Below, piece by piece: positions 1 to 10,978 of a stretch of 10,978 nucleotides of DNA. The position numbers and the translations under genes were made by a program. This DNA is from an uncultured Campylobacter sp. Lineage in GTDB: Bacteria; Campylobacterota; Campylobacteria; Campylobacterales; Campylobacteraceae. A model generated the notes under the pieces. That model saw only the letters and a list, made by a program, of their open reading frames with translations. It did not search any database and was not told the origin of the DNA. Position 1 is the stretch's first letter. Each line of letters opens with the position of its first letter. The stretch lies in the NCBI GenBank assembly GCA_934728065.1, contig CAKVDW010000028.1:1-10978 (forward strand). The letters run 5' to 3'.

Positions 1-684
1 TTCTCTCACCCTTGCCTCAGGATTTACGGGCAAATTTTGCGCCCCTGCGTTAAGATAAGAAGCGATGATTTCGGCTAAAAATTCGCTCTCATCAGCCTTT
101 GCGCGCTCAAATTTACCGCCTTTTTTGGGGCTTATGTCAAAATTTTGGCTCGTAAAACGCTCCAAACTCGCCTTTATGCGCTCATCGCGCAAGTCTTGCG
201 TCTCTTTTATGTGCGCTCTTTGCTCGTCTAAAAACGCTTCATAATACGCACTTAAAGCCTCAGTAAGTGCCTTTTGGTTCTGCGAGCTAGGGCTTTGGCG
301 GTAAATGCTTATGGCATTTGCCACTGCTTGCTTTTGGCTAGCCTTTTTGTTTGGCGTTTGCAAATCCATAAAAGGCGGATTTTTACCAGCTTTTATGGCT
401 TTGAGCCACGAATTTATGTTTTTGTCCCGCTCTTTTTCGCGTTTTGCCAGCTTTTCTTGCTTTTGAGCGATAACCTTGTCATAGCTTTGATTTAAGGCAT
501 CGAGCAAATTCGCCTTGTTTTTTTCGCTAGGATTTTGCTTATACGCGGCTATGGCTTTTTTGGTGTGCGACGAAAGTGGCGGGTGTTCGCTTTCGCCAAA
601 AAGCGCAAGGTGCAAAAGGCTTACCGCAAGCAAAGCCTTAACAAGTGTTTGAAACGCTGAGTGAAAAGATTTAAAATCTTTCAT
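1..684 (-). CDS. Exported hypothetical protein with a duplicated helical module, partial (3' end beyond the left edge)
   Basis: I do not recognise this family. The frame is open from an ATG at 684 through 228 codons to the window edge without a stop, so the C-terminus is missing. The start is supported by a GGAG ribosome site five bases upstream and a TATAAT box at 716-721. Residues about 12-30 form a hydrophobic signal segment (core ALLAVSLLHLALFG) after a basic start, so the protein is probably exported to the periplasm or membrane. The rest is charged, rich in Lys, Gln, Glu and Ala, and probably helical. Two stretches, residues 44-100 and 124-180, are related: AIAAYKQNPSEKNK...LLDALNQSY against AISIYRQSPSSQNQ...LTEALSAYY, an internal duplication with an 80-residue offset. 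It is divergent from the Bax-inhibitor gene. The codon use is richer in G+C than in the genes at 831-6764. Confidence 0.72.
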   Translation of the reverse strand, partial: MKDFKSFHSAFQTLVKALLAVSLLHLALFGESEHPPLSSHTKKAIAAYKQNPSEKNKANLLDALNQSYDKVIAQKQEKLAKREKERDKNINSWLKAIKAGKNPPFMDLQTPNKKASQKQAVANAISIYRQSPSSQNQKALTEALSAYYEAFLDEQRAHIKETQDLRDERIKASLERFTSQNFDISPKKGGKFERAKADESEFLAEIIASYLNAGAQNLPVNPEARVRE

Positions 685-715
685 TTTTTCTCCTTATGTG
701 TAAAATTTCACCGAC

Positions 716-721
716 ATTATA
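716..721 (-). promoter_or_regulatory. -10 box of the leftward exported-protein gene
   Basis: On the minus strand this is a perfect TATAAT, preceded by a T-rich run and about 32 bases upstream of the ATG at 684. Transcription would start near 709 and give a short leader of about 25 nt that includes the GGAG site. No -35 box is visible, as expected for Campylobacter sigma-70 promoters. Confidence 0.6.
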
Positions 722-780
722 TAAAATTTTTGATGAAATTTAAATTTGGGGGCAAAAATTTTTGCATTTGTAATTTTGCG

Positions 781-800
781 TTTAACTTTTTAGGTTAAAT
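781..800 (+). promoter_or_regulatory. Dyad TTTAAC-N7-GTTAAA overlapping a possible -10 box of the Bax-inhibitor gene
   Basis: A perfect 6-bp inverted repeat lies at 781-786 and 794-799. Its right arm overlaps TTAAAT (795-800), the most plausible -10 hexamer upstream of the gene at 831. A dyad here could be an operator, but the sequence is A+T-rich and such a dyad can arise by chance. The gene's ribosome site is AGGAG at 821-825. Confidence 0.3.
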
Positions 801-830
801 TTACGAACATTATTTTATTGAGGAGAGAAA

Positions 831-1526
831 ATGAGTCTTTATGATAGAGATTACGCTCGTTCAAATGACCTTGCAGGACAAAGTTCTGCTTTAAGCTTGT
901 TTATCAAGCAAACTTACCAGCTTTTTGCGGCTTCACTTTTGGCTGGAGCAGCTGGAGCTTATGTTGGCATTTATGCTCTAGCAAGAGTATTTTTAGAGAA
1001 CAAGTTAATGTTTTGGGTTCTTTTTGGCGTTGAGCTTGTGCTTTTATTTGCTTTGATGGCGAAAAAAAGAGAAACACCGCTTAACTTAATCTTACTCTTT
1101 GCCTTTACTTTTTGTTCAGGGCTTACACTTACACCGCTTTTATACTCTGTCTTGTCTTTACCAGCAGGTGCGGTTATCGTAGCTCAGGCTTTGGCTTTGA
1201 CAAGTGTTGCTTTTGGAGGACTTAGCATTTTTGCGATGAATACAAAACGCGATTTTACCACTATGGGAAAAATGCTTTTTATCGCACTCATCGTTGTCAT
1301 TTGTGCAAGCTTGTTGAATATCTTTATGGCTAGTCCTATCTTGCAACTTGTTATTTCATCAGTAGCGGCGATTTTGTTTAGCTTTTACATTTTGTATGAT
1401 ACTCAAAACATTATTCGTGGTAACTATGAAACACCTGTTGAGGGTGCAGTAGCCTTATATCTTGATTTTTATAATCTTTTTGTCTCTTTGCTCCAAATTT
1501 TAGGACTTACAAGCAATAGAGAATGA
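831..1526 (+). CDS. Bax inhibitor-1 / YccA-YetJ family inner-membrane protein
   Basis: A 231-residue polytopic membrane protein of the BI-1 (UPF0005, TMBIM-like) family. After a hydrophilic N-terminus of about 22 residues there are about seven hydrophobic segments, roughly at 28-50, 58-76, 84-105, 112-134, 147-166, 169-188 and 206-225. The C-terminal signature is clear: LYLDFYNLFVSLLQILG at 209-225. Asp190 (ILYDTQN) and Asp212 (LYLDFYN) sit where the pH-sensing di-aspartyl pair lies in the B. subtilis homologue YetJ, which conducts calcium. The bacterial role is unclear; YccA-like members are linked to FtsH-dependent membrane protein quality control. The start is set by AGGAG at 821-825. The gene is monocistronic, because a strong terminator begins two bases after its stop. 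Confidence 0.9.
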   Translation: MSLYDRDYARSNDLAGQSSALSLFIKQTYQLFAASLLAGAAGAYVGIYALARVFLENKLMFWVLFGVELVLLFALMAKKRETPLNLILLFAFTFCSGLTLTPLLYSVLSLPAGAVIVAQALALTSVAFGGLSIFAMNTKRDFTTMGKMLFIALIVVICASLLNIFMASPILQLVISSVAAILFSFYILYDTQNIIRGNYETPVEGAVALYLDFYNLFVSLLQILGLTSNRE

Positions 1527-1527
1527 G

Positions 1528-1563
1528 AAAATTTGCAGGAAAGAAATTCCTGCAAATTTTTTT
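1528..1563 (+). terminator. Rho-independent terminator of the Bax-inhibitor gene
   Basis: A perfect 14-bp inverted repeat (1528-1541 and 1547-1560) encloses a 5-base loop and runs directly into a seven-T tract (1557-1563). It starts two bases after the TGA of the upstream gene. It separates that gene from the secG operon, which has its own promoter just downstream. Confidence 0.9.
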
Positions 1564-1577
1564 AATCATTCCTTTTC

Positions 1578-1613
1578 TTTTTCAAGCTTTTTTCAAGCTT
1601 TTTCAGCTAAAAT
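1578..1613 (+). promoter_or_regulatory. Promoter of the secG-frr-pyrE-nrdB operon with phased T-tracts
   Basis: Three near-identical units of the form TTTTTCAAGC lie at 1578-1587, 1588-1598 and 1599-1607, followed at once by a -10-like TAAAAT (1608-1613). The units repeat every 10-11 bases, about one helical turn. This agrees with the periodic T-rich upstream pattern that replaces the -35 box in Campylobacter sigma-70 promoters. Transcription would start near 1620, about 24 bases before the secG ATG, leaving room for its AAGGA ribosome site (1633-1637). Confidence 0.6.
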
Positions 1614-1643
1614 ACTCTTTTAAAACACTTTTAAGGAAAAATT

Positions 1644-1994
1644 ATGACGACCATTTTAATTGTCTTTCAAGTCATCTTGGTTATCCTCATCACTATATCA
1701 GTGCTTTTGCAAAAAAGTTCAAGCATAGGGCTTGGAGCATATAGTGGCAGCAATGAAAGCCTCTTTGGCGCTAAAGGACCAGCTGGATTTTTAGCCAAAT
1801 TCACCTTTTTCTTAGGCGTTTTGCTCATTGTTAATACTGTGGCTTTAAGTTATGTTTATAATACTGCTGGCAAAAGCTCTTTAGCCGAAAAGATAGCCTC
1901 GCCTCAAGCTCCAAGTGAAGCAAATGCTTCAAACGAAGTTGTGCCAAATTCAGCACCTCAAGCACCGCAAGCTCCAAGCGTTCCGCAAAATTAA
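1644..1994 (+). CDS. secG: Protein translocase subunit SecG
   Basis: The small auxiliary subunit of the SecYEG channel, which assists SecA-driven export across the inner membrane. The 116-residue protein has the usual two-helix layout: TM1 at about 3-22, a conserved loop QKSSSIGLGAYSGSNESLFG (23-42) followed by AKGPAGFLAKFT, then TM2 at about 53-72. The gapped Gly-rich loop is the family signature. The C-terminal tail (about 82-116) is rich in Ala, Pro, Gln and Ser and contains repeated PQAP; such extensions are common in epsilonproteobacterial SecG. It is the first gene of the operon, with AAGGA seven bases before the ATG, and frr follows after nine bases. Confidence 0.93.
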   Translation: MTTILIVFQVILVILITISVLLQKSSSIGLGAYSGSNESLFGAKGPAGFLAKFTFFLGVLLIVNTVALSYVYNTAGKSSLAEKIASPQAPSEANASNEVVPNSAPQAPQAPSVPQN

Positions 1995-2003
1995 GGATAA
2001 AAT

Positions 2004-2561
2004 ATGCTCAATGACATTTACACCAAACAAAAAGCACAGGCTGATAAAAGCCTAGAAGCTCTCAAAAAAGAATTTACCACACTTCGCACAGGAAAGGTCA
2101 GCATAAACATACTTGATAACATAACTGTGGATTATTATGGCACACAAACACCTTTAAATCAAGTAGCAACTATACTTGCTACTGATGCAAGCACTATAAA
2201 TATTAGTCCTTGGGAAAAATCAATGCTTAAAGGTATAGAAACAGCCATATCAGCAGCAAATATCGGCGTAAATCCTACTAATGACGGCGAGGCTGTAAAG
2301 CTTTTTTTTCCGCCGATGACAAGAGAACAAAGAGAAGAAAATGTTAAGCAGGCTAAGGCTATGGGCGAAAAGGCAAAGGTGAGCATTCGCAATGTCCGCA
2401 AGGACGCAAATGATGGCATTAAAAAGCTTGAAAAAGATAAAACCATAAGTGAAGATGAGGCTAAAAAGGCTTATGATGAGGTGCAAAAGCTCACTGATAG
2501 CTATACAAACAAGATTGATGAAGTTGTAAAGGCAAAAGAAAGCGAGCTTTTAAAGGTATGA
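2004..2561 (+). CDS. frr: Ribosome recycling factor
   Basis: With EF-G, this factor splits the post-termination ribosome complex in the cytoplasm. The 185-residue length is exactly typical. Domain I, a three-helix bundle, is formed by about 1-30 and 105-185; domain II is the beta-rich middle (about 31-104, with [16 protein letters not shown]). Conserved features include LRTGK at 27-31 and RNVRKD at 129-134, whose arginines 129 and 132 match the ribosome-contacting arginines of the E. coli protein. The ribosome site is AAGG, eight bases before the ATG. The stop overlaps the pyrE start by four bases (ATGA), which indicates translational coupling. Confidence 0.96.
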
Positions 2562-3166
2562 ACCTAGAAGCCATTTATAAAAAACGAGGAGCTTTTTTAC
2601 AAGGGCATTTTTTGTTAAGCTCAGGCAAACATTCAGCCTTTTACTTGCAAAGTGCAAAGGTTTTGGAGTATCCAGCTGTGGCTCAAGAGCTTTGCCAAAA
2701 TTTAGCCTCTATCATTTTTAAGGCTGGGCTTGAATTTGACAGCATTTGCTCGCCTGCACTTGGCGGAGTTTTGGCAGGCTATGAGTTAGCAAGAGCTTGT
2801 GAAAAACGGTTTATCTTTACTGAACGAGTGAATGGCGAAATGAATTTAAGGCGTGGTTTTGAGGTGAAAAAGGGCGAAAAATTCATCGTTTGCGAAGACA
2901 TTATCACCACAGGTGGTTCAGCTTTGGAGAGTGCTTTGGTGTTGGAGGGTTTAGGTGGCGTTGTCGTAGGCTTTGCTGCTTTGGCAAACCGTGGCTTTTG
3001 TGGGGTAAGCAATCTTGGCACAAAAAGCAAGGAAAATGCAAAATTACCCACAAATTTGCCTCTTTTTGCCTTAGGCAATTTTGACTTTGAAATTTATGAA
3101 CCTAGCGTTTGTCCGCTTTGCAAAAGTGGTTCAGTGGCTATAAAACCGGGAAGTCGTGGGAATTAA
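2558..3166 (+). CDS. pyrE: Orotate phosphoribosyltransferase
   Basis: Converts orotate and PRPP to orotidine 5'-monophosphate in de novo pyrimidine synthesis. The 202-residue protein shows the type I phosphoribosyltransferase signature [14 protein letters not shown] at 109-122, with acidic pair Glu113-Asp114. Upstream are the family segments [12 protein letters not shown] (20-31) and SPALGG (65-70), and [12 protein letters not shown] at 90-101 lies in the mobile catalytic loop region. The tail carries CPLCKSG (185-191) and KPGSRG, a C-terminus I recall from several other bacterial PyrE proteins; the CxxC may bind metal, which is inference. It is coupled to frr by a 4-bp overlap. Confidence 0.94.
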
Positions 3167-3167
3167 A

Positions 3168-3578
3168 ATGAAAGCAAAGGCAATAATGGCTACAAGGATA
3201 GAGCGTTCAAAAGCCTTTTTGATTGACATTTTTTTGCTCTATGTGCCTATTTTATATCTTTGTTATTTTGTTTTGGGTTCAAAAGAAGCTTTTTTGGATA
3301 ATCAAGCCGTTATTTTTACTTGTAGTGCCTTTTTTGGAATAGTGCAAGCCATTTTTTTAAGCGCAAAGGCTCAAAGTCCCGGACTTAAGGCTTATGATTT
3401 ATATTTAATAGACAAAAAAACAGGTAAAAAAGTAAATTTTTTAAAGATAATGATTAGATATGTGGTATTTTTGTTGGGTTCATCTTTGCTTTTTGGGCTT
3501 TTGATGAGCTTTTTAAGAAAAGATGGCTTAGCTTTGCACGATTTGCTTAGTCAAACTTGTATAGTAAGAAAGGTTTAA
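3168..3578 (+). CDS. RDD-family integral membrane protein
   Basis: A 136-residue membrane protein of the RDD family, whose members are small three-helix proteins of mostly unknown function. Hydrophobic segments lie at about 18-37, 47-65 and 97-115. The naming residues are visible: Arg10 or Arg13 and Asp20 at the start of TM1 (TRIERSKAFLID), and Asp125 in GLALHDLLSQTCIV near the end. The ATG at 3168, one base after the pyrE stop, was chosen. A GTG at 3156 in the same frame would overlap pyrE and has no better ribosome site, while an internal ATG at 3186 has AAGG at a good distance and is a real alternative (130 residues). It sits between pyrE and nrdB in the operon; its role there is unknown. 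Confidence 0.8.
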   Translation: MKAKAIMATRIERSKAFLIDIFLLYVPILYLCYFVLGSKEAFLDNQAVIFTCSAFFGIVQAIFLSAKAQSPGLKAYDLYLIDKKTGKKVNFLKIMIRYVVFLLGSSLLFGLLMSFLRKDGLALHDLLSQTCIVRKV

Positions 3579-3579
3579 A

Positions 3580-4602
3580 ATGCACAGAAAAAGAATTTAT
3601 AATCCAAGCTCAAATGAATCTTTAAATCAAAGGCGAGTCTTTGATGGCAATCCGCACGGGATTTTAAATTTCACTAAGGCAAAGTATGTTTGGGCTTTAA
3701 AACTTTGGGATTTAATGGAGGCAAACACTTGGTTTCCAAAAGAAGTTGATACAACAAGAGATGCTATGGATTACCGCGTGAATTTAACTCGGGCTGAAAA
3801 GAGAATGTATGATTTAGTGTGGTCTCAACTCATCTCAATGGACAGCTTTCAGGCTAATAATCTTGCTGATAACATAAACCCTTACATAACCGCACCTGAA
3901 ATTAACGCTGTTTTAGCAAGACAAGCTTATGAGGAAGCTAATCATTCAAAATCCTACGCCGTTATGGTTGAAGCCATTTGCGAAAATACCGACCTCATTT
4001 ATGAAATGGAAAAACACGATGCCACTTTAAGAGAAAAAAATGACTTTATTTCGGGCATTTATGAGGAATTAGCTGGCGATGTTGATGATAATAAACTCCT
4101 TTTGGCAATGGTAGCTAATCAAATTTTAGAAGGCATTTACTTTTACAGCGGCTTTACAGCCATTTATGCCTTAGCAAGAGCTGGAAAAATGCTTGGTTCA
4201 GCCCAAATGATAAGATTTATCCAAAGAGATGAAATCACTCATTTGCTTTTGTTTCAAAATATGATAAATTCAACACGCAAAGAAAGACCAGACTTATTTA
4301 CGCCAGAAAATACAGATAAAATTTATGATATGTTTAAAAAGGCTGGAGAACTTGAGATTAAATGGGGCAAATATATCACGCAAAATCAAATTATGGGCTT
4401 TACTGATGATATAATCGAGGAATATATCCATTATCTTGTCGATCAACGCCTCATAGCCATAAATTTTGAAAAACTTTACAACGCCAAACACCCGATAAAA
4501 TGGGTTGATGATTTTTCTAAATTCAATGAACAAAAGAGCAATTTCTTTGAGGGCAAGGTAACAAACTATTCAAAAGGGAGCATTTCTTTTGATGATTTTT
4601 AG
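3580..4602 (+). CDS. nrdB: Class Ia ribonucleoside-diphosphate reductase, beta subunit (R2)
   Basis: Holds the diiron-tyrosyl radical cofactor that the NrdA subunit uses to reduce ribonucleoside diphosphates for DNA synthesis. At 340 residues it is of normal length for the short form. All metal ligands are readable: Asp88 (SMDSF), Glu119 and His122 (YEEANHSKSY), Glu184 (QILEG), Glu218 and His221 (RDEITH). Tyr126 lies seven residues after Glu119, matching the radical tyrosine Tyr122 of E. coli. The acidic C-terminus SFDDF matches the flexible tail that docks to NrdA. The ATG follows the RDD stop by one base, with AAAGG upstream. No nrdA is in the window, so the partner must lie elsewhere. Confidence 0.96.
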   Translation: MHRKRIYNPSSNESLNQRRVFDGNPHGILNFTKAKYVWALKLWDLMEANTWFPKEVDTTRDAMDYRVNLTRAEKRMYDLVWSQLISMDSFQANNLADNINPYITAPEINAVLARQAYEEANHSKSYAVMVEAICENTDLIYEMEKHDATLREKNDFISGIYEELAGDVDDNKLLLAMVANQILEGIYFYSGFTAIYALARAGKMLGSAQMIRFIQRDEITHLLLFQNMINSTRKERPDLFTPENTDKIYDMFKKAGELEIKWGKYITQNQIMGFTDDIIEEYIHYLVDQRLIAINFEKLYNAKHPIKWVDDFSKFNEQKSNFFEGKVTNYSKGSISFDDF

Positions 4603-4704
4603 GGTTTTTGCGCTTTTTTGCAACTTGGCTTTTTTCTTTGTTGTGCTTACAACATATTTTAACCGTCCATTTTGCTTGGCAAAACAAGGTTTTGGAGCAA
4701 TGAG
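4603..4704 (+). promoter_or_regulatory. nrdB-pncB gap with T-tracts and a possible -10 box
   Basis: This 102-nt stretch has no gene. Runs of T near 4606-4610, 4613-4618 and 4629-4635 precede TATTTT (4655-4660), which could be a weak -10 box for pncB. A 6-bp stem with a GCTT loop (4639-4654) is too weak to call a terminator. The pncB operon half could therefore be read through from nrdB, from its own promoter, or both. Confidence 0.3.
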
Positions 4705-6120
4705 ATGAAACAAAACCTAAGCCTACTTTGCGACTTTTATGAATTTACTATGAGTTATGGCTATTTTAAAAGCTCTTTAGCAGAAAAAATTTGTTATTTT
4801 GATGTTTTTTTTCGTCAAGTGCCTGATAATGGTGGCTTTGTCATTGCTGCTGGATTAGAACAAATTATTGATTTTGTCAAAAATTTACACTTTGATGATG
4901 AGGATATAGAGTTTTTTCGCCAAAAAGGGCTTTTTGATGAGCAGTTTTTAACCTATCTTAAGGACTTTAAATTCAGCGGGGACATTTGGGCGGTTAGAGA
5001 GGGAGAAATCGTCTTTGCTAATGAGCCTATTTTAACGGTTCGCGCTAAAGCTCCTCAAGCACAACTTTTAGAGACTTTTATTTTGCTTTCCTTAAATCAC
5101 CAAAGCCTTATTGCCACCAAAACTTCACGAGTGGTTAGAGCAGCTCTTAACCGTGCTGTTTTGGAGTTTGGTTCTCGCAGGGCGCAAGGGGTTGATGCAG
5201 CTCTTAAGGGTGCAAGGGCGGCTTTTATCGGTGGTGCTGCTGGTTCAGCCTGTGCTTTGGCTGATAAGCTTTGGGGCATAAATTCAAGCGGAACTATGGC
5301 TCACTCTTTTGTGCAAATGTTTGAAAGCGAGCTAGAAGCTTTTATTCGTTACTGTGAAATTTATCCGCACAATGCTATCTTGCTTGTAGATACTTACAAT
5401 GCCAAAAATGGCATCAAAAACGCCATTAAAGCCTTTAAAAAGGTGCTTGTTCCACAAGGAATTCAAAAATGTGGCATTCGTTTGGATTCTGGTGATTTGT
5501 GTGAGCTTTCAAAATTTGCAAGAAAAGAACTTGACAAAGCAGGATTAAATGAATGTAAAATAGTAGCTTCAGGGGCTTTAGACGAGTTTGAAATTTCAAG
5601 GCTTTTAAAAATGGGTGCTAAGATAGACATTTTTGGCGTAGGCGAGAGACTCATTACCGCTAAAAGCTCACCTGTGCTGGGTTGTGTTTATAAGCTTGTT
5701 GCCACAGAGGACGAAAAAAACATAGTGCCAAAGATTAAAATCAGCGAAAGCTCTGATAAAATTTCAAATCCTCACCACAAAAAACTCTACCGCTTTTTCG
5801 ACAAAAGCACAGGAAAAGCCCTTTTTGATGAGCTTTGTTTGGCTGATGAAAAACCAAGTGTTTGCCACTGCATACTTAATCAACACTACTGCCAAGAACC
5901 TAACAATTTAAGCAAAAAAGAGCTTTTAATCCCCATTTTTCAAAACGGAGAACTTGTTTATGAATTGCCAAGCTTGCAAGAAAGTAGAGCCTATGCTAAA
6001 GAGCAATTACAATGCTTTGATGAGGACATAAAAAGTCTTGAAAATCCAAGTCGTTACGAGCTTTGTTTGTCTTTAAATTTGCAAAAGCTCAAAGATACGC
6101 TTTTAACAAGGGTTGAATGA
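4705..6120 (+). CDS. pncB: Nicotinate phosphoribosyltransferase
   Basis: First step of the Preiss-Handler NAD salvage route: nicotinate, PRPP and ATP give nicotinate mononucleotide. At 471 residues it fits the longer bacterial NAPRTase type. Visible motifs in order are DFYEFTMSYGYF (10-21), FGSRRAQG (155-162), GTMAHSF (196-202) with His200 at the place of the phosphorylated histidine, LVDTYN (227-232), GIRLDSGDL (257-265) and FGVGERL (310-316). The C-terminal third has several cysteines (387, 389, 396), among them CHC. A frame-matched TTG at 4672 lacks a good ribosome site, so the ATG at 4705 with GGAG at 4694-4697 was chosen. It overlaps pcm by four bases. My recollection is that C. jejuni has other genes between nrdB and pcm. 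Confidence 0.92.
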   Translation: MKQNLSLLCDFYEFTMSYGYFKSSLAEKICYFDVFFRQVPDNGGFVIAAGLEQIIDFVKNLHFDDEDIEFFRQKGLFDEQFLTYLKDFKFSGDIWAVREGEIVFANEPILTVRAKAPQAQLLETFILLSLNHQSLIATKTSRVVRAALNRAVLEFGSRRAQGVDAALKGARAAFIGGAAGSACALADKLWGINSSGTMAHSFVQMFESELEAFIRYCEIYPHNAILLVDTYNAKNGIKNAIKAFKKVLVPQGIQKCGIRLDSGDLCELSKFARKELDKAGLNECKIVASGALDEFEISRLLKMGAKIDIFGVGERLITAKSSPVLGCVYKLVATEDEKNIVPKIKISESSDKISNPHHKKLYRFFDKSTGKALFDELCLADEKPSVCHCILNQHYCQEPNNLSKKELLIPIFQNGELVYELPSLQESRAYAKEQLQCFDEDIKSLENPSRYELCLSLNLQKLKDTLLTRVE

Positions 6121-6815: not shown

Positions 6816-7382
6816 ATGAAAAAATGCTTATTTATAATCTTGCTTTTAGCCTGCGTAAATGCCCTAAATGCGGCGAATTTTAGCGAAAAAAGCACGCTTT
6901 CACTTGGTGCGTATGGCAACTTTGGCGCTGCTATGGGCGGGGGCGTGGAGTTTGGATTTGCCCTATACAGCACGGATTTGGTGCAGGTGCGAAACGCTGT
7001 TTCAGCCCAAATGCGCGCCTTAAAACTGCAAGAAGAAAAATACGACTCGTCCGCACTCATCTTTCACGAAAAGCTTATGGTTGGGCTTTTGATGGGTAGT
7101 TCTGCGCTTTCGCATATCGGGTTTGCGTATTTTCGCCCTTATCTTTTTATCAGCGGAGGCTTTGGGCTAGTTGCCACAAAGGACACGGCTATGGGCGAGA
7201 AGCCATTTTATTACGAGATACAAGGCGGGATAGGGCACGAGTTTATCACTATGAGCGGGCATAGCGTGTTTTTTGAGCTAGGCGGTGGAATGGGCAAGCT
7301 CACGCACGATTTGCCTGAGCAAATCGACAAGCCTACGCTTGGCGGAACAAAATTCTTGCTTGGTTACAGGTGGCAGTTTTAA
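6816..7382 (+). CDS. Probable outer-membrane beta-barrel protein of unknown function
   Basis: I do not recognise a named family. The 188-residue product starts with a classical signal peptide (MKKCLFIILLLACVNALNA, cleavage probably after residue 19). The mature part is rich in Gly and aromatic residues in alternating strand-like runs, such as LSLGAYGNFGAAMGGG, GFAYFRPYLFISGGFGLV and FFELGGGMGK. It ends in FLLGYRWQF, the terminal-phenylalanine pattern typical of proteins inserted by the BAM complex, so a small barrel of about eight strands is plausible. LLLAC could be read as a weak lipobox, but the -2 Leu and early position argue against it. Three in-frame starts exist (TTG 6810, ATG 6813, ATG 6816); the last has the best spacing from AAAGG. 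Its composition is clearly richer in G+C than pcm just upstream. Confidence 0.75.
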   Translation: MKKCLFIILLLACVNALNAANFSEKSTLSLGAYGNFGAAMGGGVEFGFALYSTDLVQVRNAVSAQMRALKLQEEKYDSSALIFHEKLMVGLLMGSSALSHIGFAYFRPYLFISGGFGLVATKDTAMGEKPFYYEIQGGIGHEFITMSGHSVFFELGGGMGKLTHDLPEQIDKPTLGGTKFLLGYRWQF

Positions 7383-7400
7383 TAGCTTTTGCTGTTTGGT

Positions 7401-7469
7401 AAAACCTTTTTCACTCGCGCAAATATCACGGATTTGCTCTAAAAGCTCATCAAAATAATCACTCCTGCC
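7401..7469 (-). pseudogene. Short remnant resembling the RhuM virulence-protein family
   Basis: Read on the minus strand, 23 codons from 7469 to 7401 contain DYFDELLEQIRDICASEK. As I recall, this closely matches a segment of RhuM-family proteins (DYF-ELLERIRDIRASEKRF). An in-frame TAA lies immediately upstream (7470-7472), no start codon or ribosome site is apparent, and the similarity stops after ASEKGF, just before the frame runs into the 3' end of the barrel gene on the other strand. It is therefore a broken fragment at best. RhuM proteins are often found in islands and on mobile DNA. The match is from memory and short. Confidence 0.45.
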
Positions 7470-7572
7470 TTAGCCTTGCATTGCCAACAAAAAACCTTTT
7501 TGCAAGTATGAGCGGCATCCTCCGCCCAAACCTATTGCAAAACAAAATTTTCATCATTTTAAGCCACAAGCC

Positions 7573-7599
7573 TTTCAAGTGGCTTTTCGCCACTTGAAA
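7573..7599. terminator. Inverted repeat between convergent genes, possible terminator
   Basis: A perfect 11-bp inverted repeat (7573-7583 and 7589-7599) with a 5-base loop sits six bases beyond the ilvC stop, between ilvC and the convergent barrel gene. An alternative 7-bp pairing (7561-7567 with 7579-7585) would exclude it. Neither form has a classical U-run on its 3' side, so termination is inferred from position rather than from the full signature. Confidence 0.4.
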
Positions 7600-7604
7600 A
7601 AAAG

Positions 7605-8603
<999 letters not shown>

Positions 8604-8635
8604 TTATCCTTTCGCTTGATGAATTTAAGCGGAAT

Positions 8636-8665
8636 TTTTATCATTTTTGGCGGTTTTTGATAAAA
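8636..8665 (-). promoter_or_regulatory. Dyad in the ilvC leader
   Basis: A perfect 8-bp inverted repeat, TTTTATCA (8636-8643) and TGATAAAA (8658-8665), flanks a 14-base spacer inside the inferred 5' untranslated region of ilvC. It could fold in RNA or be bound by a regulator. I see no leader peptide rich in Ile, Leu or Val and no T-box features, so classical attenuation is not supported. Confidence 0.35.
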
Positions 8666-8685
8666 TTTCTCTTAAATTTTTCTGC

Positions 8686-8694
8686 ATTATAGCA
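8686..8694 (-). promoter_or_regulatory. Extended -10 promoter of ilvC
   Basis: On the minus strand the sequence reads TGCTATAAT, a perfect TATAAT (8686-8691) with the TG extension. Transcription would start near 8679 and leave a leader of about 79 nt before the ATG, longer than the other leaders in the window, with the dyad at 8636-8665 inside it. Confidence 0.7.
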
Positions 8695-8790
8695 AATTTA
8701 TGTTGCTTTTTTGGCACGAGTGAAAAATCTTTGCCTAAAATTTGTGAAATTTTGGGCGAAAATTTAAAAAATTTAAATTTTTTTAGAAAT

Positions 8791-8899
8791 TTCAAGCACT
8801 TTCAAAATTCCAAACACTTTTAAATTTCAAAGGTTTTTAAAATTCACAAAATCAAAATTCCCAAGCATTTTCAAAATTTTAAAGACTTTTTTAAAAGCA
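8791..8899. repeat. Degenerate A+T-rich short repeats
   Basis: Roughly 17-21-base units of the form CAAGCACTTTCAAAATT recur at 8791-8809, 8810-8828, 8829-8845, 8860-8880 and 8881-8898 with many mismatches. Low sequence complexity makes the exact unit uncertain. Confidence 0.35.
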
Positions 8900-8904
8900 C
8901 CGCT

Positions 8905-8996
8905 TGTCATACTGAGGGCAAAGCCCGAAGTATCCATAAATTTAAAAAGTGCGTCTTAATTTCTTTGTGGATATTTCGCATTCGCTCAATATGACA
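8905..8996. repeat. 92-bp imperfect palindromic repeat element
   Basis: The left arm (8905-8936) begins TGTCATACTGAG and ends GTATCCA. The right arm (8968-8996) is its imperfect reverse complement, ending TCAATATGACA. About 31 bases separate them. The left arm contains its own small hairpin, GGGC-AAA-GCCC (8916-8926). The pattern TGTCAT-x-CTGAG...GAA-x-ATCC resembles a short palindromic repeat that I recall as dispersed in many bacterial genomes, Campylobacterota included. No transposase is nearby, so it is best described as a REP- or MITE-like element. Confidence 0.6.
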
Positions 8997-9025
8997 ACAA
9001 AAAAGTCAATATGACAAGAAAAAAT
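8986..9025. repeat. 20-bp tandem duplication at the edge of the palindromic element
   Basis: TCAATATGACAACAAAAAAG (8986-9005) is followed directly by a copy differing at 2 of 20 positions (9006-9025). The duplicated block contains the terminal TCAATATGACA of the palindromic element, so the element end is present twice. Confidence 0.65.
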
Positions 9026-9072
9026 AACTCAATACAATAGAAAAATTATCAGTATAGCCATAAGCAAAAAAA

Positions 9073-9330
9073 CTACTCCACAAAAATGCCCTTATATCCT
9101 GTTTTTTCTACTGCTTCAAGCAGTTTTTCCTTGCTGGTATTATCCGCACATTCGATTTTAGCGATTTTATCTTTTAATGTAGCCTTAACAAAACTCACGC
9201 CATCAACCTTTAAAAGCTCTTTGCGAACCAAACTCGTGCAAAGTAAGCAGTGCATACCCTCGACAAAGATTTTATATTCAGCCGCTTGCAAACTCGCACA
9301 GCACGCTAACAAAAACACAAATTTACGCAT
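9073..9330 (-). CDS. MerP-like periplasmic heavy-metal-binding protein (HMA domain)
   Basis: An 85-residue protein with a signal peptide (MRKFVFLLACCASLQA, cleaved probably after residue 16) followed by a single ferredoxin-like HMA domain. The metal site is GMHCLLC (25-31) with Cys28 and Cys31; MerP and copper chaperones usually have GMTCxxC, so His replaces Thr. VEKTGYKG (74-81) is the conserved loop facing the site. It probably passes a soft metal ion such as Hg2+ or Cu+ to the MerT-like protein encoded just upstream; which metal cannot be told. A longer frame from 9384 would bury the signal peptide behind 18 hydrophobic residues, so the ATG at 9330, overlapping the upstream stop by eight bases, was chosen. 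It is the last gene of the operon. Confidence 0.82.
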   Translation of the reverse strand: MRKFVFLLACCASLQAAEYKIFVEGMHCLLCTSLVRKELLKVDGVSFVKATLKDKIAKIECADNTSKEKLLEAVEKTGYKGIFVE

Positions 9331-9658
9331 AAAATACCCCCAAAATTTCAGGGTAAAAAAGAACAAAAACAAGCAAAAGCGCACAAAACATTTGAAAAAT
9401 CGCTGCTTTTACCTTGTTTTGACATAAATTTTTCTTACACCTTTGAAAATTCCATAAATATCCCACAAAAAAGCCCACCGCTACAACGCTTAAAGGCACT
9501 CGGTAAGCACTCAACAAATCTGCACCCAAAATCCCAAAAGAAAAGCCAAAGAGCAAAAATAAAAGCGCGGGCAGGCAACACAGGGTTGCCACCACACCAA
9601 AAATGTATGCCAAAGCCAAAAAAATCCTTTCTTTTGCTATGAAGTTTTGAATTTTCAT
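9323..9658 (-). CDS. MerT-like inner-membrane metal transporter
   Basis: A 111-residue membrane protein with hydrophobic segments at about 11-43, 52-70 and 86-106. It has both cysteine pairs of MerT: vicinal Cys27-Cys28 in the first helix (VVATLCCLPALLFLLFGFS) and a second pair, Cys74 and Cys79 (RCKKNLC), in the loop before helix three. The motif CCLPxLxxxxFGFSxG and AYRVPL after it also fit MerT. In mercury operons MerT carries Hg2+ inward from MerP to cytoplasmic MerA; neither merA nor merR is seen here, so the substrate is open. Its start overlaps the upstream transglutaminase gene by ATGA, and its stop overlaps the MerP-like gene by eight bases. Confidence 0.78.
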   Translation of the reverse strand: MKIQNFIAKERIFLALAYIFGVVATLCCLPALLFLLFGFSFGILGADLLSAYRVPLSVVAVGFFVGYLWNFQRCKKNLCQNKVKAAIFQMFCALLLVFVLFYPEILGVFYA

Positions 9659-10743
9659 TTTTCTACCGCTTCATAGCTATATGAAAACTCGTTTGGCTCG
9701 TAGTAGTTAAGCACATTGCCATCAACCTCGCCATAAACATAGCCAAAGTTATTTAAGGGGCTTTGTTCAGGCTGTGGAGACAAGATAAAATCCCTTGCCG
9801 TGTTAAAGCCAAACCAGCACATTTCCCAACTGCCAAAAAGATAGTTTTTAAGCTCTTTGATTTTGGCATCTTCATTGCTTAAATTTTCGGCTAATTTTAC
9901 CTTTGCCACATCGCCCGGGTCGCAAGGTATCCAGCCATAATCCTTGATGAAAAACTCAGCACGGCAATGTTGCGCTTTGGTAATGTTTGCGACTTTATTT
10001 TTCGCACTTCCCATCGCATTTGAAAAGCGAGATTGCCCAAGCCTTATGCCAAAAACTTCCCTTGCAGGTATGCCAACACTTCGGCAAAATGCCACAAAGA
10101 CCGAGCTAATATCCGTGCATTTGCCAAAAAGCTTTTTAGACTCTAAAATCGCCCTTGCATCACCCACACCACAGCCTATAATGCTCTCATCTCTTTGCAT
10201 ATTGCTTGCTACCCACTCAAAAAGGGCTTTTGCTCTACTTAAATCATCTTTTGCCTTTGCTTTTGTGATGATTTCTTGTGCTGTTTTTTTGACTATGCCA
10301 CTTGTTTGAATGTGCGTTGTGGCTTTAAGATATTCTTTTATGTCTTTTGGAATGGCGACTTTTTGGGGCTTTAATGAAAAGTCTATATTGCGCTCAACCG
10401 TTACAATGTCGAAAGAAAGGTCAAGGTAGGGAGATTTGACATTTTCAAATTCAGCATAAAGCGTTGGAATTTGAGTATTTGAGATATAAGCTTTTGTGCA
10501 ATTTCCCACAAAATTTATATCACTTGTAAGGTATTGATACTCTCTAAAAAGTGGCAAAGGTATCCAAAGCCTTGTCATCTTGCCTTTTTCTAGGATTTTA
10601 TGTTTGAGCATAACGCTAAATTCACGCTTTTTAAGCTCTTGCTTTGTGCTTGTTTTACCCTGCATTGACAAGGGCAAACAACAAGCCGCAGCAGTAAGTC
10701 CAGCGAGCTTAAAAAGCTCTCTTCTTGAAACTGAATTTGACAT
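9655..10743 (-). CDS. Tat-exported transglutaminase-like (TGc domain) protein
   Basis: A 362-residue protein with a clear twin-arginine signal, SRRELFKLAGLTAAACC (6-22), so it is probably exported folded. Two adjacent cysteines (21-22) leave a Tat-lipoprotein possible but unproven. The middle carries a transglutaminase/cysteine-peptidase fold: Cys209 in GKCTDISSVFVAFCRSVGIPAR (207-228, key residues Cys209 and Asp211), His259 in AQHCRAEFF and Asp275 in PCDPGDV form the expected Cys-His-Asp triad. Before it, about 40-130 looks beta-rich (WIPLPLFREYQYL), as in other bacterial members of this group. It might be a peptidase, an amidase or a crosslinking enzyme; the reaction is not known. It is first in an operon with MerT- and MerP-like genes. 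AAGGAT precedes the ATG and TATAAT lies at 10771-10776. Confidence 0.85.
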   Translation of the reverse strand: MSNSVSRRELFKLAGLTAAACCLPLSMQGKTSTKQELKKREFSVMLKHKILEKGKMTRLWIPLPLFREYQYLTSDINFVGNCTKAYISNTQIPTLYAEFENVKSPYLDLSFDIVTVERNIDFSLKPQKVAIPKDIKEYLKATTHIQTSGIVKKTAQEIITKAKAKDDLSRAKALFEWVASNMQRDESIIGCGVGDARAILESKKLFGKCTDISSVFVAFCRSVGIPAREVFGIRLGQSRFSNAMGSAKNKVANITKAQHCRAEFFIKDYGWIPCDPGDVAKVKLAENLSNEDAKIKELKNYLFGSWEMCWFGFNTARDFILSPQPEQSPLNNFGYVYGEVDGNVLNYYEPNEFSYSYEAVEK

Positions 10744-10770
10744 TTTTATCCTTTTTTGTGAAATTTAAGC

Positions 10771-10776
10771 ATTATA
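10771..10776 (-). promoter_or_regulatory. -10 box of the transglutaminase-merT-merP operon
   Basis: Perfect TATAAT on the minus strand in the context GCGCTATAATGC, lying between the truD stop and the operon's first ATG. Transcription would start near 10764, about 21 nt before the start codon. No inverted repeat typical of a MerR operator (a long spacer between -35 and -10 with a dyad) is visible around it. Confidence 0.65.
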
Positions 10777-10805
10777 GCGCGTTTTAATAAATGTTTTTTA
10801 ATGGC

Positions 10806-10978
10806 TTAAAGCTCACTCAAAGGCTCTTGCAACAGCTCTTCTAAAATGATAGTGGCGTAGCAGCCTTTTTGCAAAAAAAACTCCACGCAAAAATGCGCCT
10901 TTTCCTCATCGTAGCGACATTGAGCGTTTTGCAAAAAGCTCCACAAAAAGCGGCGCGAGCCTGTAAGGAGCTCTGCAA
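10806..10978 (-). CDS. truD: tRNA pseudouridine synthase TruD, C-terminal fragment (runs off the right edge)
   Basis: The last 56 residues and stop of a gene entering from the right edge. The visible part holds [10 protein letters not shown] and then [17 protein letters not shown], which match the C-terminal TruD pattern G-x-RR...F-LPKGSYAT-LL-EL. TruD makes pseudouridine at position 13 of tRNAs. The usual GSYAT is GCYAT here. The catalytic core is outside the window, so the call rests on this tail alone. The stop lies 63 bases before the start of the transglutaminase gene, which has its own promoter in between. Confidence 0.75.

What the first reader, a model, noticed from the sequence alone, without database searches (positions are those of the whole stretch)
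9073..10776. Overlapping operon of a Tat-exported transglutaminase-like protein with MerT- and MerP-like metal transport proteins
All three genes overlap (4 bp and 8 bp) behind one promoter, so they are made together. MerT (both Cys pairs) and MerP (GMHCLLC) are recognisable, but merR and merA are absent and the leading gene is a periplasmic Cys-His-Asp transglutaminase-fold protein. A plausible reading is a soft-metal uptake or handling unit in which the enzyme processes a metal-binding peptide or protein in the periplasm. That function is inference; the parts and their coupling are seen directly.
Basis: partly seen in the sequence, partly recalled or inferred. Interest (0 to 1): 0.75.

Follow-up and report, generated by a model that had tools for sequence, protein, structure and literature searches.

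The report
Selenium-linked MerT/MerP-like transport module
Three overlapping genes that look like a mercury-transport pair behind a secreted transglutaminase-type enzyme form a conserved unit that travels with the genes for using selenium, so they may be part of the missing machinery by which bacteria take up selenium.

Summary
The three-gene unit is real, with overlaps as described. Its coupling is conserved: among 397 Campylobacterota genomes, 112 of the 113 with both genes have the MerT-like gene directly downstream of the enzyme gene. HMA and MerT-like genes follow the enzyme in 76 of 79 loci inspected.

The metal reading is not supported; the signal points to selenium. All 116 genomes with the module-type enzyme have selenophosphate synthetase SelD; 0 of 114 SelD-lacking genomes have the enzyme. 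SelD lies in 36 of 80 fetched loci of up to 20 kb, in several arrangements, including abutting MnmH-SelD-enzyme-MerT-HMA genes. In 15 of 79 loci MerT is fused to a TusA domain. Five of 80 module genomes lack SelA, and all five have MnmH, which fits selenium supply rather than selenocysteine alone.

Best reading: a cysteine-relay selenium importer (HMA to MerT to TusA/SelD) with a periplasmic helper enzyme of unknown substrate. The selenium link is strong; import is inferred; in the window's own clade the link is co-occurrence only; co-occurrence is not corrected for relatedness; no experiment exists.

The parts
9655..10743 (-). Tat-type exported transglutaminase-core protein, 362 aa; catalytic Cys209, His259, Asp275 and near-invariant Cys191, Cys260
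9323..9658 (-). MerT-like three-helix membrane protein, 111 aa; Cys27-Cys28 in helix 1, Cys74/Cys79 in the second (cytoplasmic by charge) loop
9073..9330 (-). MerP-like HMA protein with signal-peptide-like start and CxxC (Cys28, Cys31), 85 aa from the ATG
9655..9658 (-). 4-bp overlap of enzyme and MerT-like genes
9323..9330 (-). 8-bp overlap of MerT-like and HMA genes
10744..10805 (-). 62-bp gap to an upstream minus-strand frame (10806-10976, open at the window end); any promoter would lie here or further upstream

Best explanation
The unit is a selenium acquisition module built on the MerP/MerT cysteine-relay design. A reduced or thiol-bound selenium species in the periplasm is captured on the CxxC of the HMA protein, passed to the Cys-Cys pair in helix 1 of the MerT-like protein, then to Cys79 on the cytoplasmic side, and on to a TusA/YedF-type carrier (fused to MerT in some lineages) that feeds SelD. 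SelD makes selenophosphate for selenocysteine (SelA/SelB) and/or 2-selenouridine (MnmH). The Tat-exported transglutaminase-fold enzyme probably prepares or releases the selenium species, for example by acting on a selenium-bearing peptide adduct. Shown: gene order and its conservation, co-occurrence with SelD, adjacency to and fusion with selenium genes, conserved cysteines. Inferred: that the cargo is selenium (about 0.8), import direction and relay (about 0.55), the enzyme's role (about 0.25).
For: 112 of 113 genomes keep enzyme and MerT-like gene adjacent. All 116 strong module genomes have SelD; 0 of 114 SelD-lacking genomes have the module or a MerT-like match (uncorrected Fisher 1e-21). 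SelD in 36 of 80 loci, SelA 18, SelB 18, in four orientations on the enzyme tree. L106 and L108: MnmH-SelD-enzyme-TusA/MerT genes overlapping or 3-4 bp apart, HMA overlapping in L106. L098: SelA-SelB-YedF-enzyme-TusA/MerT-HMA-DsrE-SelD on one strand. TusA-MerT fusion with CPxP in 15 of 79 loci and, by my count, both domains in 111 of 120 listed homologues. SelA in 75 of 80 module genomes; the 5 without it have MnmH. Charge pattern puts loop 2 and the N-terminus inside. Relay precedents: MerP-MerT (PMC5715351, passages); YeeE with TusA-family YeeD (PMC11073785, passages).
Against: Co-occurrence is not corrected for relatedness; SelD is in 283 of 397 genomes anyway. In the window's clade 0 of 26 tree rows has SelD in its locus, and the window's genome is not held. 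In the family of G001 only 4 of 121 genomes have the enzyme. 167 SelD genomes lack the module, 132 of them also YedE, so it is not needed for selenium use in general. YedE coexists with it in 50 of 116. Two loci have the enzyme without MerT/HMA (L102, L110). A review ties most predicted Sec-containing transporters to metal or metalloid resistance (PMC13188914, passage). No transport, binding or enzyme data.
Confidence: 0.6

Rival explanations
1. A soft-metal (Cu, Hg, Zn) uptake or handling unit; selenium genes lie nearby for unrelated reasons.
For: HMA and MerT-like folds are classical metal carriers.
Against: No metal family among 30 scanned representatives of the 35 most widespread other neighbour clusters; strict co-occurrence with SelD; fusion to a TusA domain.
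Confidence: 0.1
2. A sulfane-sulfur or thiosulfate importer (as YeeE-YeeD) that serves sulfur transfer; selenium genes are linked because sulfur and selenium share carriers.
For: TusA and DsrE domains are sulfurtransferase families; YeeE-YeeD moves thiosulfate (PMC11073785, passages).
Against: A general sulfur function would not predict absence from all 114 SelD-lacking genomes or operons with SelD and MnmH.
Confidence: 0.12
3. An assembly or protection factor for selenocysteine enzymes, mainly formate dehydrogenase, rather than a selenium supplier.
For: Formate-dehydrogenase-like and 4Fe-4S genes lie near the module in many loci.
Against: Five of 80 module genomes lack SelA and have MnmH; two of them (G308, G217) have MnmH-SelD-enzyme gene order. 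Draft incompleteness could explain single absences, less so five.
Confidence: 0.13

Closest known systems
MerT/MerP of mercury-resistance operons
   Same: Membrane Cys-Cys helix, loop Cys pair, periplasmic HMA CxxC; relay logic (PMC5715351 passages)
   Different: No merR/merA recognised; window MerT below the Pfam and NCBIfam cut-offs; leading transglutaminase gene; linkage to selenium genes; TusA fusions in relatives
YedE/YedF (FdhT/FdhU), predicted selenium transporter and partner
   Same: Co-occur with SelD only (YedE 85 of 85 in SelD genomes); the TusA domain of the MerT fusion matches YedF
   Different: YedE is an unrelated membrane family; it is present in only 50 of 116 module genomes
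YeeE-YeeD (TsuA-TsuB) thiosulfate uptake
   Same: Cysteine relay through a membrane protein to a TusA-family acceptor, sometimes one polypeptide (PMC11073785 passages)
   Different: Different membrane fold and presumed cargo; no periplasmic enzyme or HMA carrier known to me there (recall)
NCBIfam MerT_CopZ_Se (NF045683), MerT/CopZ fusion selenoprotein
   Same: MerT plus HMA-type parts with a selenium connection (it contains Sec)
   Different: Window HMA scores 26.2 against a cut-off of 375 bits; the window parts are separate genes and use Cys

Membership tests
mer operon | merR regulator and merA reductase with merT and merP | tested here: not met
   None recognised among the listed window ORFs or in the scanned neighbour clusters; not every ORF was family-scanned
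MerT (Pfam PF02411) | Score over the curated cut-off | tested here: not met
   Window 12.2 against 32.9 bits; 14 of 19 relatives match at E <= 0.01; the L098 fusion passes (36.4 bits)
HMA (Pfam PF00403) | Score over cut-off and CxxC | tested here: met
   44 against 24.8 bits; CxxC 77 of 77
Transglutaminase core (Pfam PF01841) | Score over cut-off and Cys-His-Asp triad | tested here: met
   84.2 against 23 bits; triad 77, 78, 78 of 78
Selenium-utilisation gene set | Occurs only with SelD | tested here: met
   116 of 116 with SelD, 0 of 114 without; not corrected for relatedness
Selenium-utilisation gene set | Adjacent to sel genes | tested here: inconclusive
   Met in 36 of 80 loci overall, in 0 of 26 rows of the window's clade
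YedE/YedF system | Membership of TIGR04112 or TIGR03527 | tested here: not met
   Neither model matched the three window proteins in NCBIfam
Selenium transporter | Moves a selenium species across the membrane | not testable with these tools
   Needs uptake assays

The most novel reading that the evidence does not exclude
This is a dedicated, possibly high-affinity selenium import system: a periplasmic enzyme that readies a selenium compound, an HMA carrier and a MerT-type cysteine-relay membrane protein delivering to TusA/SelD. It would be the first dedicated selenium transporter of any organism and a change of cargo for the MerT/MerP design.
Probability: 0.45. Interest if true: 0.92.

Novelty: new variant of a known kind. 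Interest (0 to 1): 0.8.

Why it matters
A 2024 study says that no dedicated selenium transporter is known in any organism, and reviews of 2022 and 2026 say the same for high-affinity transport in prokaryotes (PMC11097638, PMC9312934, PMC13188914; passages). This module gives a concrete, deletable candidate with a testable cysteine relay. It also suggests that proteins annotated as mercuric transporters or "aryl sulfotransferase" may handle selenium.

Tried and rejected
Copper/mercury unit: no metal-transport or resistance family among 30 scanned representatives; the 35 most widespread other neighbour clusters include 5 that I did not scan, and 3 of the 30 matched no family. Mutual exclusion with YedE: tested, not found (50 of 116 module genomes; 35 of 167 SelD genomes without the module). 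Selenocysteine in the module's own HMA, suspected where my gene caller lost HMA: reading TGA as U in seven loci showed plain Cys HMA frames in five (L050, L091, L095, L097, L108) and none in L102 and L110. RNA element in the window: 0 Rfam matches at gathering scores. Structure: no model obtained; one weak solved-structure match (3isr, E 5.6e-4).

Mended while checking: a first SelD count (33 of 79) came from a crude gene caller and was replaced by tblastn (36 of 80). I had thought that Cys74 was not conserved (column); recounting showed a second-loop pair in 49 of 77 rows, window included.

Set aside: 8 of 124 enzyme genomes had weak hits (107.9-136.8 bits); in the alignment all eight lack Cys209, His259, Cys191 and Cys260 but keep Asp275, and 5 of 8 lack SelD. 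Not fetched at 20 kb: 36 of 116 strong genomes (G001 was seen through L001). The tree has 79 rows (L104 too short, L111 without intact gene); the conservation counts use 78, 77 and 77 rows, window included.

Full report
What is in the window. The window looks like Campylobacterota DNA: its enzyme's named close homologues are from Helicobacter and Campylobacter, and it carries ilvC, nicotinate phosphoribosyltransferase, PCMT and RDD genes. At its right end, on the minus strand, lie three overlapping genes: a Tat-type transglutaminase-core protein (9655-10743), a MerT-like membrane protein (9323-9658) and an HMA protein (9073-9330 from the ATG). The overlaps are 4 and 8 bp. A minus-strand frame ends 62 bp upstream of the first gene, so a single own promoter is not shown.

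Is the coupling real? I built profiles from 18 enzyme and 19 MerT-like sequences and searched 397 Campylobacterota genomes. The enzyme was found in 124 (116 strong, 8 weak), the MerT-like protein in 115, both in 113. In 112 of these 113 the MerT-like match lies downstream on the same strand within 600 bp, in 92 within 30 bp (the larger gaps include the fusions, where the match begins inside a longer gene); in the remaining draft genome (G347) they lie on different contigs. I fetched up to 20 kb around the enzyme in 80 of the 116 strong genomes. MerT-like and HMA genes follow the enzyme in 76 of the 79 loci with an enzyme frame; the exceptions are a contig end (L093) and two solitary enzymes (L102, L110). 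The one named genome fetched, Helicobacter sp. MIT 11-5569, has the same triad beside other genes.

What the neighbours say. Clustering the genes of these loci gave, besides the triad, SelD, SelA, SelB, YedF, MnmH and formate-dehydrogenase-like genes as recurring neighbours. Among the 35 other most widespread clusters I scanned 30 representatives; none is a metal-transport or resistance family. By tblastn SelD lies in 36 of 80 loci, SelA in 18 and SelB in 18: SelD divergent upstream in 25, co-directional upstream in 4, downstream same strand in 5, downstream opposite in 2. On a tree of the enzyme (79 rows) these labels need 8 changes in all, so proximity arose or was rearranged more than once; some placements rest on long branches. 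In two unfetched genomes, G127 and G273, coordinates also put SelD next to the enzyme. In L106, read on its reverse complement, MnmH 6909-7934, SelD 7918-8952, enzyme 8957-10048, TusA-MerT 10045-10653 and HMA 10641-10901 overlap or nearly abut. L108 has MnmH, SelD, enzyme and TusA-MerT in the same order with an HMA frame after them.

Fusion. In 15 of 79 loci the MerT-like protein carries an N-terminal TusA domain with CPxP. In the one that I scanned against NCBIfam (L094) the domain matches selenium_YedF. A database search gave 121 homologues at E <= 1e-10; 111 of the 120 listed carry both PF01206 and PF02411 by my count, with named hosts in Nitratifractor, Caminibacter, Hydrogenimonas, Nautilia, Lebetimonas and Sulfurospirillum.

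Co-occurrence. SelD is over its cut-off in 283 of 397 genomes. All 116 strong module genomes are among them, and none of the 114 others has the module or a MerT-like match. The uncorrected Fisher value is 1e-21; relatedness inflates it, and I built no host tree. As an internal contrast, the eight weak enzyme homologues lack Cys209, His259, Cys191 and Cys260 while keeping Asp275, and five of the eight are in SelD-lacking genomes. In 80 module genomes SelA is in 75, and the five without it (G075, G388, G308, G217, G390) all have MnmH. YedF matches in 52 of 80, some only over its C-terminal part. This places the module at selenium supply, above the branch between selenocysteine and selenouridine. 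YedE, the other suspected selenium transporter, is in 85 of 397, 50 of them module genomes: the two are not exclusive. 132 SelD genomes have neither.

Mechanism. Conserved cysteines mark a path: CxxC of HMA (77 of 77), CC in helix 1 of MerT (77 of 77), Cys79 in the second loop (74 of 77; with a partner Cys in 49 of 77), CPxP in the fusions. The charge pattern puts the N-terminus and second loop in the cytoplasm (mean net charge +1.9 and +4.5 against 0 for the first loop), so a fused TusA would face the cytoplasm. The same logic is described for MerP-MerT and mercury (PMC5715351, passages) and for YeeE with its TusA-family partner YeeD and thiosulfate (PMC11073785, passages). The enzyme's role is the weakest step: its triad and two further cysteines are near-invariant, but substrate and activity are unknown. 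One solved structure matched weakly (3isr), and no model could be made.

Prior knowledge. Reviews of 2022 and 2026 state that no high-affinity selenium transport system has been identified in prokaryotes (PMC9312934, PMC13188914; passages), and a 2024 study that none is known in any organism (PMC11097638; passages). The 2026 review also says that most predicted Sec-containing transporters, a putative mercuric transport protein among them, are implicated in metal or metalloid resistance, which speaks for caution. A 2015 comparative study lists a 'transglutaminase-like enzyme' as a STRING partner of YedF in Slackia; the parts that I read do not comment on it (PMC5322559; passages, section 10, first part of section 9). 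My ten paper searches listed no paper that I could see describes this module; they cover an open-licence library only.

Limits. The window's own genome is not held. Its nearest held relatives G023 and G138, and G001, have SelD, SelA and MnmH, but none of the 26 other tree rows in the window's clade has SelD in its locus. In the family of G001 only 4 of 121 genomes carry the enzyme, so the module is patchy there. The element, the direction of transport and the enzyme's chemistry await experiment.

Noticed in passing
homologues of window 9323-9658: Public records name the MerT-like protein 'aryl sulfotransferase' in Helicobacter, Campylobacter and Aliarcobacter, apparently a propagated misannotation.
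   Followed up: partly
L120-L127: A Tat-signalled relative of the enzyme that lacks the catalytic Cys and His (Asp kept) exists in 8 of 397 genomes, without MerT-like or HMA matches in the fetched stretches: a possibly non-enzymatic subfamily.
   Followed up: partly
L111 (G257), L104 (G183), L076 (G211): Enzyme copies interrupted by stops or frame breaks in two genomes, and two tandem copies in a third.
   Followed up: no
L045, L061, L066 and similar loci: A response regulator, a kinase-like gene and a Peripla_BP_6 protein lie on the opposite strand between module and formate-dehydrogenase-like genes; a possible sensor of the system.
   Followed up: no
L128 (G221), L129 (G307): MerT-like proteins without the enzyme, one followed in frame by a rhodanese-like stretch (by eye) and one by an HMA domain.
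   Followed up: no
Many Campylobacterota SelD genes have one in-frame TGA, as expected of selenocysteine-containing SelD.
   Followed up: no
window 8895-9010: Intergenic stretch with inverted-looking 'gtcatactgag...' and 'aatatgacaa' motifs that may be a dispersed repeat.
   Followed up: no
132 SelD-bearing genomes have neither YedE nor the module, so at least one further route for selenium must exist.
   Followed up: no
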